NCBI GenBank assembly: GCA_007922195.1
Contig: ML682224.1
Coordinates: 343,194 to 407,193, forward strand
Direction of reading: 5' to 3'
From: Podocnemis expansa
Taxonomy: Eukaryota; Chordata; Testudines; Podocnemididae
DNA length: 64,000 nucleotides
Shown: positions 10,454-61,053 of the stretch, one piece after another
Numbering within the stretch: position 1 is the stretch's first letter
Layout of the letters: every line of letters begins with the position of its first letter
Program-made: the position numbers and the translations under genes
Notes under the pieces: model-generated
Seen by the model: the letters and a program-made list of their open reading frames with translations, nothing else
Told to the model about the DNA's origin: nothing
Databases searched by the model: none

Positions 10454-10768
10454 CTGAGCAGGTCACGCCAGCATCCCACTCATGATAGCAGTTATGCACT
10501 CCCCATCCTCTGTTCTTGCAGTGCCACAGAGCAGACTCGGTACCACTGCACTCAACTCTAGCCAGCCAAATTGGTCCAGATCCTGCTCCAAAATGAGCTC
10601 TGTAATGGACACTAAGAGCAGATCCACATCCCAGCTGCTTACAGGCGACCTTAGCATCTTTCATGTCCCAGACATAATCACACACTGTCCCCCACTGATC
10701 ATTGTGTTTAACTTCCACTCTCCCAGCACAGGGGCTGCCTCCATTCACCAGTCTCAGCTCTTCAACAC
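10454..10768 (-). CDS. SRCR domain exon (gene A, probably first SRCR domain)
   Basis: This exon encodes one complete group B scavenger receptor cysteine-rich domain, an extracellular ligand-binding module. It is flanked on the minus strand by an acceptor (pyrimidines then TTTGCAG) and a donor (CAG|GTAAGA). Length is 315 bp, phase 1 at both ends, as is usual for one-exon SRCR domains. It starts VEELRLVNGG and contains WGTVCD, CKQLGCG, GPIWL and ECSGTESALWHC. Eight cysteines lie at residues 13, 29, 42, 47, 73, 83, 93 and 103, the full group B set. The usual CDD after WGTV is CDY here, so one acidic residue of the likely cation site is missing. The first codon is split and would give Gly if joined to the signal-peptide exon at 33317-33386. 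No other SRCR exon lies between them, so I infer it is SRCR1 of that gene. The family (CD163/WC1/DMBT1-like) is secure; the exact orthologue is not. Confidence 0.93.
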
Positions 10769-10984
10769 CTGCAAAGAGATGCAGAGCAGGATCAGAGCGA
10801 GCAGGGATCCACCTCCACAGTGTTATCACAACAGAGTCCACACCTGGCAGCAGGGGTCCATGCCCAGAGCAATGGCAATCAGCTGTGCCCAGAGCTGTCT
10901 TTTGGAGCTTCCTTCTCACATCTCAGGGCCTCACACTCAAGCTGTCAGTGCTGCAGCTCTTGCCATTTTATCACACACCAACAG

Positions 10985-11600
10985 CAGAGACCCTGAGAAG
11001 GGAGGGTGGGGAGAAGGAGGAGTGGAGCAGGGAAGTGTGGGGACAGGTGGCAGATTCAGACTTTGCAAGAGAGTGAGGTGCAGGTGGTGTGTGGACAGAA
11101 TGATGAGAGGGAAGAGAAGCATGGGGTATCTGTAGCAGAAGGCAGGAGGAAGAAATGTGGAGGGAACAGGCTTCTGGATTGGGAGTAGGATGAGGAGTGG
11201 AGATGCAGCAGAAGGGGGTCAGGGATGCAGGGAGAGGAGAGAGTATGGAGAAAAAGTGAGGACGTAGGCCAGGAGAAGGAAAGGGAAGGAAAACAAAGGG
11301 GGGGCAAAAGAAGGGATGTGGTGAAGAGAAAGATCTGAAAAGGGGGGAGGAGGATAGGCTGGGAAGGGTGATCTTTTACAGGTGCATGATGTGGGGGTCA
11401 GAGACAAGACAGCAAGAGAGTGGTGTTAGGAAGGGAGGGAATATGGAGCAGGAGATGAGAGGGGGAGATAGTCAAGACTGGAGCATGAAGGCAGGATGGA
11501 AGGGAGGTTGCAGGAGGCAGTCTGGGGCATGTGGATGGGGAATGTAGGAGAGAGGGTCAGCAATGGAGGGAGGAAGAACAGAGGAGTGTAAAGGAAGGGG
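10985..11600. repeat. Long polypurine tract (plus) / polypyrimidine tract (minus)
   Basis: About 600 bp in which the plus strand is overwhelmingly A and G with few pyrimidine interruptions. It lies in the gene A first intron about 220 bp upstream of the SRCR acceptor, so the transcript would carry a long pyrimidine-rich stretch. ORFs there on the minus strand are only Pro/Ser/Leu low complexity. Confidence 0.75.
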
Positions 11601-11604
11601 CTCT

Positions 11605-12295
11605 AGGGTGAGTCTGTGCTTCCTAGTCTCAGACAGAGAATCTGAGTAGTCAGTCAGAAAACTGCTGCAGTGTGTGAAAGACTAAATCAATCCCATCCCA
11701 TCCTATTACAGTAACAGAACAGTTGAAGTCAATGGCTGGTATCAGTGAGACAGTCTCCCATATCTTGGTCTGTAACTCCCCCTTGAGCAATAGTACAAGT
11801 TCTGCATGCAAGGGTGAGCCAGGCTGTGTTAATTAGCTCAGTGAATTTCAGACTGTTTCCCAACCAGGCCTTCTTCAGCCTCAGGAGATGATCTGGGAGG
11901 GTAAGTGAAGGCAGCGCTGGGCCATGGTGTCATGAGACGCACATCCATGAACCCAGGTCTATGATCTATATGCTTTTTTTTTTTGTTCACTTATGCACTG
12001 TGACTGTATGATCTGATGCCATGTTAGATTCTTTTTGAATGTTCTACCATATGATTATGATATCATGTTTCCTGCATCATCATGTATGTGTGCCCGTAGG
12101 AAGCAAGTTACATAGCTCAGATTGTTTGTTTCTAGCACAGAAGCTGGAGAGTTACATGACAAAGGCAATACAAATTGACCTCCCAGCCTCAGGAAGGAGG
12201 AGGGAGGAGTCCGTGCAGATTGGAAACAAAAAGAGATGCTTTGAAGAGATTGAAGTATTTTACCTAGGCAACTCCATTTTGAAACATCTTCAAGC
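11605..12295. other. Intronic non-coding sequence, nothing recognised
   Basis: No repeat termini or exon signals stand out. Confidence 0.5.
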
Positions 12296-12457
12296 CACTG
12301 TTCCCTCTAAGCTGTGCACATGTGTGCATGCACACAGGCCATAAAACCTTCACACACAACAAAATAAAGTATGCACAAAAAAATTCAACAGTGCTAATAT
12401 TAGCACACACACAATTTTTTTGTGCACATAGCCTATGAAAAATTAGAGAGAACATTG
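12296..12457. mobile_element. Small palindromic MITE (CACTGTTCCCTCTAA ends)
   Basis: The ends CACTGTTCCCTCTAA and TTAGAGAGAACATTG are inverted repeats (13 of 15). The interior is GTGTGCATGCACACA-like alternating sequence. No matching 8-bp target duplication was found, so the superfamily is open. Confidence 0.55.
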
Positions 12458-12459
12458 TC

Positions 12460-59639: not shown

Positions 59640-60096
59640 AGGATACAGACAAATTGAAAAGAGTCCAGAGTCAGGAGACAAAAATGATTTGGGTGCTGGA
59701 GTACAACAGATATCAGGAGAGGATGAGGGAACTAGGCTTGTTTAGTTTACAGAAGCAAAAAAAGGGGGAGGGATTTGTTAGCAGCTTTCATCTACCTGAA
59801 GTGGATTTCCAGGCTGATGGAGCTAGGCTCTTGTCAGTGGTGATAGATGACCAAAAAAGAACAAATGGTCTGAAGTTGCAGTGGGGGAAGTCTAGATTGG
59901 ATATTAAGAAACATGTTTTTACTAAGACGGTAGTGAAGCACTGGACTATGTTGCCTAGGGAGGTAGTTTTTAAGGTGCAGCTTGACAAAGCCTTGGCTGG
60001 GATGGGTTCATTGGGGTTGGTCTTATTTTGATCAGGGAGTTGGACTAGGTGATCTCCTGAGGTCCATTCCCTTCCTAATTTTCTATGATTCTTTCC
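59640..60096 (+). mobile_element. CR1 LINE 3' end fragment
   Basis: ORF2 C-terminus: KRVQSQETKMIWVLEYN, RMRELGLFSLQKQ, RTNGLKLQWGKSRLDI, VKHWTMLPREVV, VQLDKALAGM. It is followed by the GGAGTTGGACTAGGTGATCT block and a TTCTATGATTCTTT end. It sits in or near gene B, about 60 bp 3' of the hinge exon on the opposite strand. Confidence 0.85.
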
Positions 60097-60154
60097 CTCT
60101 GTGACCCAGCACCAGATTTGTTTAAAACTTGATGGGTGGAGAGTGTTGTTTTAC

Positions 60155-60190
60155 CTGCTTTTAACAGTGATGGTGTTGTCTCTGGCACAC
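60155..60190 (-). CDS. Short Thr/Pro-rich hinge exon (gene B)
   Basis: A 36-bp minus-strand exon with a strong acceptor (TTTCTCTTTCCAG) and donor (AAGCAG|GTAAAA), phase 1-1, coding for GVPETTPSLLKA once the split Gly codon is completed from the SRCR exon 401 bp upstream. Thr/Ser/Pro composition suggests an O-glycosylated hinge between SRCR domains or before a membrane segment. Being so short, the call rests on the two good splice sites, correct phase and position. Confidence 0.65.
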
Positions 60191-60591
60191 CTGGAAAGAG
60201 AAAGGTAGGAAAGTTGGAATCAGGAGAGAGGGGCTGGTGATTTGCTTGTTATCAGAGGGAACATACCCTCTGAGCATTCTTGGGGGCTTCCATGCATCAC
60301 ATTTACAAACTCTCCCAGAAGGACAGGGTCTCTTAGTTAGTGACTTATCAGTCAAACCCCTTCTCCTGAGGATTCTGGATACAAATCTGCACTAGGGCCT
60401 GGGATGGATTAAGGGGCTATTACAGCTGATGCAACAGCCAATCTGCCCCAATAAAGGTACCATCCAAAAGCTTCCTTGATGCTAGAGCACCCAGTGGATG
60501 AAGGGCCTGAACTGTGACCAGGAGGGGGCAGTGAATCTATTCTCTTTCCATGAAATTATGGCTCGTAGAAGAAGCTTCTCCTTTCGCTCAC
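60191..60591 (-). other. Intron between SRCR exon and hinge exon (gene B)
   Basis: A 401-bp intron with GT-AG ends. No repeat and no further exon is recognised inside it. Confidence 0.6.
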
Positions 60592-60906
60592 CTAAGCAAT
60601 TCACAGCAGCATCTTCCTTATGACCACAGTTGCTCTCACCCCAGGGTGTGGCAGGACAGTCCCAGAGAGATGACTCTGTCCCTCTGCAGTTCACCTTCTC
60701 CACCCAGATGGGACCAGTCCCCTCACCAAATGCAGCCTCACCAAGGGCAGATAGAGCACATCCACAGCCCAGTTGTTTGCAAACAACAATTGCATCTGCC
60801 ATGTCCCAGGAGTCATCACAAACTGTTCCCCAGGTGCCATGGTGGCAAACCTCCACTCTCCCCGAGCATCTGTGCTCTCCTCCAACCAAATGCAACTTGT
60901 TCTGAT
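60592..60906 (-). CDS. SRCR domain exon (gene B)
   Basis: A second complete group B SRCR domain on the minus strand, between an acceptor (ATTGCCAG) and a donor (CTTAG|GTGAGC). It is 315 bp with phase 1 at both ends, exactly the size and phase of the exon at 10454-10768. It reads QNKLHLVGGEHRCSGRVEV and contains WGTVCDDSWD, CKQLGCG, GPIWVEKVNC and SSLWDC. The eight canonical cysteines occupy residues 13, 29, 42, 47, 73, 83, 93 and 103, the same positions as in the other exon. Two further cysteines occur at residues 20 (VEVCHH) and 49 (GCGCAL). The CDD acidic pair is intact. The sequence style is closest to WC1/CD163-type domains. It is preceded after an 84-bp intron by a linker exon and followed after a 401-bp intron by a hinge exon, so it is an internal or last SRCR domain of a gene whose 5' part lies beyond the right edge. 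Confidence 0.93.
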
Positions 60907-60990
60907 CTGGCAATGAAGAAACCTCAAATTACTGGAACAGCTGGGAAAGTCCTTAGGGACCAATAAGGTAACATGGAGAAGCAGAGATAC

Positions 60991-61053
60991 CTGTGCAGCT
61001 TGTAGAGTCTGGGCTTTCAGCAGAAGGAATCTGAGGTGATTTCTCTTTCCTTC
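60991..61053 (-). CDS. Interdomain linker exon (gene B)
   Basis: A 63-bp minus-strand exon between a good acceptor (TTTCTCTCTATAG) and a donor (CACAG|GTATCT). It is phase 1-1 and fully open: about RKEKSPQIPSAESP, then DSTSCT, with split codons at both ends. It is separated from the SRCR exon by only 84 bp, and the junction codon becomes Asp before QNKLHLV. Short Ser/Pro/Thr linkers between SRCR domains are characteristic of the WC1/CD163 group. It is supported by splice signals, phase and absence of stops; there is no transcript evidence. Confidence 0.75.

What the first reader, a model, noticed from the sequence alone, without database searches (positions are those of the whole stretch)
10454..61053. 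Boundary of a head-to-tail SRCR gene cluster
Five phase-1 exons on one strand: linker, SRCR and hinge on the right, then a new signal-peptide exon, then another SRCR. The order means gene B (extending beyond the right edge) ends and gene A begins inside this window. SRCR families of the WC1/CD163 type form expanded tandem clusters in several vertebrates, so this is probably one slice of such an array.
Basis: partly seen in the sequence, partly recalled or inferred. Interest (0 to 1): 0.75.

Follow-up and report, generated by a model that had tools for sequence, protein, structure and literature searches.

The report
Turtle WC1-type immune receptor gene array
This stretch of what is very probably a turtle chromosome holds the junction between two neighbouring copies of an immune-receptor gene related to cattle WC1; one copy is complete, and the other has lost its membrane anchor, with a jumping gene sitting in that exon, and may now make a secreted protein.

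Summary
In detail: all five exons are at the stated coordinates, minus strand, phase 1, with AG/GT borders. Gene A runs leftward out of the window: signal peptide, seven SRCR domains, transmembrane exon, five tail exons; 1005 aa, no stop. Its WC1-type tail carries YEEV, YDNV, YDDA and YDDV. Gene B enters from the right with a signal peptide and seven SRCR exons in the same order. Four signal-exon units lie head to tail on the contig (C270, 638 kb); SRCR and transmembrane matches on the other strand show a further, inverted gene. The genome has 34 signal-exon and 32 transmembrane-exon matches. Best relatives are turtle WC1.1-like or M130-like proteins, at most about 80% identical. New here: gene B has no usable membrane anchor. 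Its transmembrane exon has an in-frame stop (window 59293-59291) and is split by a 680-base hAT-like transposon with a perfect 8-base target duplication; no tail exons were found after it. The 799-codon ectodomain is open, so B may be a secreted receptor or a young pseudogene. Family and multigene expansion are already known in chicken, platypus and ungulates; the lost anchor is the modestly new part.

The parts
60991..61053 (-). gene B interdomain linker exon (GRKEKSPQIPSAESPDSTSCT), between SRCR6 (64394-64083, outside the window) and SRCR7
   Evidence: equivalent in gene A at C270:328154-328092
60592..60906 (-). gene B SRCR7 exon (d'-type; 10 Cys)
   Evidence: Pfam SRCR 118 bits; best match CD163 SRCR9; cysteines counted
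60155..60190 (-). gene B hinge exon (VPETTPSLLKA)
   Evidence: AG/GT borders, phase 1; similar to GVTETTASLSRTA of P0056
59274..59325 (-). gene B transmembrane exon, broken: acceptor kept, in-frame TGA at 59293-59291, cut after 59274 by an inserted element
   Evidence: 76% DNA match to the gene A transmembrane exon over 76 columns
58594..59273 (-). hAT-like DNA transposon inserted in the gene B transmembrane exon; 8-base target duplication CCCATGGT at 59281-59274 and 58593-58586
33317..33386 (-). gene A first coding exon, signal peptide (MA)MKGHFSSPALWLLLLTIQDTTG
   Evidence: 34 matches in the genome incl. itself
33387..33560 (-). 5' flank of gene A, conserved together with the signal exon in other copies
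   Evidence: 251-base query 33310-33560; the 19 next-best matches are 80-88% identical, most over nearly the full query
10454..10768 (-). gene A SRCR1 exon (a-type by position and literature)
   Evidence: Pfam SRCR 118.5 bits

Best explanation
The window spans the junction between two consecutive genes of a turtle WC1/CD163c-alpha-type SRCR receptor array. Shown from sequence: gene A reads as an intact type I membrane receptor (signal peptide, SRCR order fitting a-b-c-n-d-e-linker-d', transmembrane helix, tyrosine-rich tail). Gene B is a sister copy whose membrane anchor and tail are gone, its transmembrane exon being stopped and split by a hAT-like transposon, with an open 799-codon ectodomain. 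Inferred: gene A works like bovine WC1, binding microbial or self ligands through its SRCR domains and signalling through phosphorylated tail tyrosines on T or myeloid cells. Gene B, if transcribed, ends at the TGA in its former transmembrane exon and is secreted, able to bind ligands without signalling. The confidence given is for the structural statement; the secreted reading of B is scored in the section on the most novel reading.
For: Gene structure. Tail motifs and last exon of gene A. Turtle proteins of the same layout, up to 79% identity over 100% of gene A. Domain equivalence to CD163 (gene A SRCR2, 3, 5, 6 = CD163 SRCR5, 6, 7, 8; gene B SRCR7 = SRCR9). Unit structure: of 14 intervals between successive same-strand signal exons, 9 hold exactly one transmembrane exon, 5 none, 0 two. 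Gene B loss. Ectodomain of B kept: 0 stops in 799 codons; in 4000 neutral runs each, zero stops occurred in 0.025% at the element's 8.4% divergence, 1.0% at 5%, 4.1% at 3.4%. B is as close to its best relatives (79-80%) as A is to its own (79%). One of B's two closest relatives, green turtle P0014, has anchor and tail, so the loss looks lineage-specific; the C-terminus of the other, P0059, was not inspected.
Against: No transcript was seen. Gene B may be a pseudogene. Gene conversion between copies could keep its frame open without selection on B itself. SRCR7 of B has 10 cysteines against 8 in gene A's SRCR7, which may signal relaxed constraint. The 5 transposon copies used for dating came from the top of a capped list (40 of 1106 candidates scored) and make up their own consensus, so the age is rough. 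Some intervals without a transmembrane exon elsewhere show that detection or assembly may also fail. Species and cell type are unknown.
Confidence: 0.93

Rival explanations
1. Within the same array, gene B is a decaying pseudogene: after the transposon insertion and loss of the tail exons it makes no useful protein, and its open frame is a matter of youth or of gene conversion.
For: Lost anchor and no tail exons found; two more cysteines in SRCR7 than in gene A; SRCR6 of A and B shows dS 1.67 against 0.25-0.42 in the other six domains, a sign of exchange between copies.
Against: No stop or frameshift in 799 codons and GT-AG borders throughout; the element is already 8.4% from the 5-copy consensus.
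Confidence: 0.5
2. One gene only: the hinge exon at 60155 continues to the SRCR exon at 10768 and the signal exon is an unrelated or alternative first exon.
For: Same strand and matching phases.
Against: Gene B has its own signal exon at C270:459298-459238 and seven SRCRs; gene A has its own seven SRCRs, anchor and tail in the order of known turtle proteins. A stop and a transposon lie in the exon after the hinge.
Confidence: 0.03
3. The array is a DMBT1- or SSC5D-like soluble SRCR cluster rather than WC1-type.
For: Automatic names of many hits are DMBT1-like or SSC5D; in the region search with the end of gene B DMBT1-like names dominate the top by summed score.
Against: Gene A has a transmembrane exon and a WC1-type tail; its closest full-length relatives by identity are WC1.1-like, M130-like or unnamed turtle proteins.
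Confidence: 0.02

Closest known systems
Turtle WC1.1-like / M130-like proteins: P0028 (Macrochelys, 'antigen WC1.1-like'), P0033 (Caretta, unnamed product), P0036 (Dermochelys, 'M130-like')
   Same: Signal peptide, seven SRCRs in the same order, linker before the last, anchor and tyrosine tail; 78-79% identity to gene A
   Different: No near-identical copy among the 120 hits listed; gene B lacks anchor and tail
[quoted passage not shown]
   Same: One exon per SRCR, single-exon interdomain and transmembrane regions, multi-exon tail, multigene family; Type III genes have 15 exons (PMC2681482, passages), as does gene A
   Different: 6 or 11 SRCRs in cattle, 7 here.
Chicken WC1/CD163c-alpha-like genes (GgCD163_1, _8)
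   Same: N-terminal a plus a c-n-d-e-d' cassette; at least 18 genes (PMC2906472, passages and abstract)
   Different: Chicken SRCR genes lie near the MHC (PMC4988538, passages); here none of 26 MHC class I exon matches shares a contig with a listed SRCR match
Human CD163 (M130)
   Same: Gene A SRCR2, 3, 5, 6 and gene B SRCR7 best match CD163 SRCR5, 6, 7, 8, 9
   Different: 9 SRCRs in CD163; tail is WC1-type here
Chicken PIT54 and three secreted chicken class I scavenger receptors (PMC12032555, description section read)
   Same: Precedent for secreted members of this receptor class
   Different: PIT54 chain shows 4 SRCR stretches; gene B has 7 and a transposon in its former transmembrane exon

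Membership tests
Group B SRCR superfamily | SRCR domain, one exon each, mostly 8 cysteines | tested here: met
   14 of the 17 domains read in genes A, B and C have 8 Cys; SRCR4 of A and of B has 6, SRCR7 of B has 10
WC1 / CD163c-alpha-type receptors | d-e-d' membrane-proximal set with interdomain exon | tested here: met
   match to CD163 SRCR7-8-9; linker exon
WC1 / CD163c-alpha-type receptors | a-type first domain (and n-type fourth domain of CD163c-alpha) | tested here: inconclusive
   assigned from position, literature and recall; no tree was built; SRCR1 best matches CD163 SRCR7; SRCR4 was not compared with CD163
WC1 / CD163c-alpha-type receptors | transmembrane exon and tyrosine tail (gene A) | tested here: met
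WC1 / CD163c-alpha-type receptors | transmembrane exon and tyrosine tail (gene B) | tested here: not met
[quoted passage not shown]
   no RNA or protein data
CD163A (haemoglobin scavenger receptor) | nine SRCRs and YREM tail motif | tested here: not met
   seven SRCRs; the tail of gene A lacks YREM
hAT transposon (element in gene B) | 8-base target duplication and terminal inverted repeats | tested here: met
   CCCATGGT on both sides; the C45 copy has CATATATT on both sides; ends TATAGCTCTGC / TAGAGCCCTGC, an imperfect inverted repeat. Criteria recalled; no transposase or repeat library tested

The most novel reading that the evidence does not exclude
Gene B is a germline-encoded secreted WC1-type receptor whose transmembrane exon was stopped and split by a hAT-like transposon, and which has been kept since by selection as a soluble decoy or opsonin for ligands of its membrane-bound neighbours. 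Four other intervals between signal exons in this genome also lack a detected transmembrane exon, so soluble offshoots could be recurrent in the array.
Probability: 0.35. Interest if true: 0.55.

Novelty: new member of a known kind. Interest (0 to 1): 0.4.

Why it matters
It gives an exact gene boundary and a full exon map for a unit of a turtle WC1-type array, with 34 signal-exon and 32 transmembrane-exon matches in one genome. That sets a testable expectation that turtles, like ruminants and chickens, carry many of these co-receptors. The truncated gene offers a roughly datable natural case of a membrane receptor losing its anchor.

Tried and rejected
Rejected: (1) an alternative anchor for gene B at window 56488-56245; the hydrophobic run is a TTTTG simple repeat; whether that stretch is repeated in the genome was asked and not answered. 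(2) Tail exons of gene B between 33.4 and 60.2 kb: none; the only tail match listed there (E 0.49) is a stretch with a stop overlapping the gene A signal exon and its 5' flank. (3) The rest of the transmembrane exon beyond the transposon: best local match to gene A no better than chance (52 of 500 shuffles reach it). (5) Plasmid search of the SRCR exon: no match, as expected. (6) tRNA (bacterial settings) and Rfam at gathering scores in the window: none. (7) Papers on turtle WC1 arrays: none seen in the listings of the searches that named turtles or reptiles. (8) Short-peptide tBLASTn was too noisy beyond the tail hits; its output was cut. (9) Some exon borders were off by one or a few bases and were corrected; the stop position printed was two bases off and was corrected; one search used a wrong donor for one tail exon, corrected.

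Full report
Observation. Both SRCR exons score 118 bits with Pfam SRCR. The signal exon codes for (MA)MKGHFSSPALWLLLLTIQDTTG; the four turtle relatives printed start at the second ATG.

Where it lies. The window is C270:343194-407193 of an unnamed 2.39 Gb genome. A home-made SRCR profile found 19 matches there, all minus, 17 full length and 2 partial. The 17 fall into gene B (SRCR1-7, 451288-403785), gene A (353961-327691) and the first three SRCR exons of gene C (237087-223756). From the capped genome listing (150 of 350 candidates scored; 22 on C270 by my count, 16 minus and 6 plus) and the signal and transmembrane matches, a gene D lies at about 59-119 kb and a plus-strand gene at 568-594 kb; no signal exon was found for the latter.

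Species group. The closest full-length relatives of gene A are turtle proteins called antigen WC1.1-like or M130-like, or unnamed, at most about 79% identical among the 120 of 5505 hits listed (BLASTP). So the genome is very probably a turtle's whose proteins are not in that collection. The species was not identified.

Gene A. Spliced, it gives 1005 aa without a stop in 15 exons: signal peptide, SRCR1-7 with a linker exon before SRCR7, transmembrane exon, five tail exons, ending at C270:295202. The tail has YEEVDY, YYTGDS, GYDNVE, GYDDA and GYDDV. Three donors are unusual GT sites (GTTATT, GTTTGT, GTCTGT). A hinge-like exon at C270:320811 lacks a GT donor at the expected place and is left out, as in P0028 and P0033. 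SRCR2, 3, 5 and 6 of gene A match CD163 domains 5, 6, 7 and 8 best, and SRCR7 of gene B domain 9; SRCR1 matches all nine CD163 domains, best domain 7; SRCR4 was not compared. The order fits a-b-c-n-d-e-d', close to the hybrid layout reported for two chicken genes (PMC2906472, passages read); letters a and n are by position and recall, not by a tree.

Gene B. Signal exon at C270:459298-459238, seven SRCR exons, linker and hinge are open. The next exon is recognisably the transmembrane exon (76% DNA match to gene A over 76 columns including the acceptor; protein match weak, E 0.77). It starts at window 59325 and reads to LLHQPLTDFG and a TGA at 59293-59291. Nine bases after the TGA begins the 8-base stretch CCCATGGT (59281-59274) that recurs at 58593-58586; between the two lies a 680-base element (59273-58594) whose ends resemble each other inverted and which has many dispersed relatives (40 of 1106 candidates scored). 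The word itself occurs 4 times in the window, about as often as chance gives, so the evidence is its place at both ends of the element. A relative on C45, read through to its far end, is flanked by its own 8-base repeat. These are hAT hallmarks (recalled). Five copies read from 300 bases upstream share sequence with each other only from within about 15 bases of the same point, so this is the element's true end and an insertion, not a chance junction. No tail exon of gene B was found between the hinge and gene A.

What B is now. If transcribed, it should give a 799-aa secreted protein ending at that TGA; the nearest poly(A) signal-like words lie 1.4 kb (ATTAAA) and 2.9 kb (AATAAA) downstream, weak evidence. 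The element in B differs from a 5-copy consensus at 32 of 381 sites (8.4%), the others at 3.4-5.5%; those five help make the consensus, so the contrast is inflated. Under neutral change of 8.4% the B frame keeps zero stops in 1 of 4000 runs, at 5% in 1.0%, at 3.4% in 4.1%; indels were not modelled. B is 79-80% identical to its best relatives, as A is to its own. Against this: gene conversion could keep the frame, and SRCR7 of B has two more cysteines than that of A. A-B dN/dS is 0.34 over seven domains; SRCR6 has dS 1.67 against 0.25-0.42 elsewhere, suggesting exchange between copies.

Genome-wide. The signal exon with its upstream flank has 34 matches on 20 contigs, some partial (the shortest 69, 85 and 151 bases); the transmembrane exon has 32 on 19 contigs. 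Of 14 intervals between successive same-strand signal exons, 9 contain exactly one transmembrane exon, 5 none (gene B is one) and 0 two. Four of the 14 touch one of those three shortest signal matches, two of these four without a transmembrane exon; some gaps may be assembly or detection failures.

Mechanism. [quoted passage not shown] Gene A has the parts for this; expression and ligands are inferred. Chicken has secreted members of this receptor class (PMC12032555, description section).

Verdict. The system is a known kind: multigene WC1/CD163c-alpha-type receptors. What is added is the full unit, the array around it, and a truncated, possibly secreted neighbour.

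Noticed in passing
C270:568042-593594 (+), outside the window: Six plus-strand SRCR matches and a transmembrane match, a gene of the same family on the other strand, so the array contains an inversion.
   Followed up: partly
C270:427610-427702 and 464720-464827: Two partial SRCR matches (33.5 and 32.2 bits), probably exon fragments.
   Followed up: no
gene A and gene B SRCR6 (C270:330470-330156 and 407587-407276): Much higher synonymous divergence than in the other six domains, suggesting mosaic copies.
   Followed up: partly
window 30139-30963 (+) and 43196-43780 (+): Reverse transcriptase fragments (Pfam RVT_1), CR1-like by recall; the first lies in gene A's first intron, the second between the genes.
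   Followed up: partly
window 17688-18476 (-): Open frame (interrupted by 10 N) with a zinc knuckle (Pfam zf-CCHC, 27.5 bits, searched as 17688-18425), perhaps a gag-like retroelement remnant; described only.
   Followed up: partly
C682:42521-118479, C169:2145785-2176181, C121:836557-720420, C626:37305-62531: Four further intervals between signal exons without a detected transmembrane exon; the last two start at partial signal matches.
   Followed up: no
C270:270375-281193: An assembly gap of 10,819 N between genes A and C.
   Followed up: no
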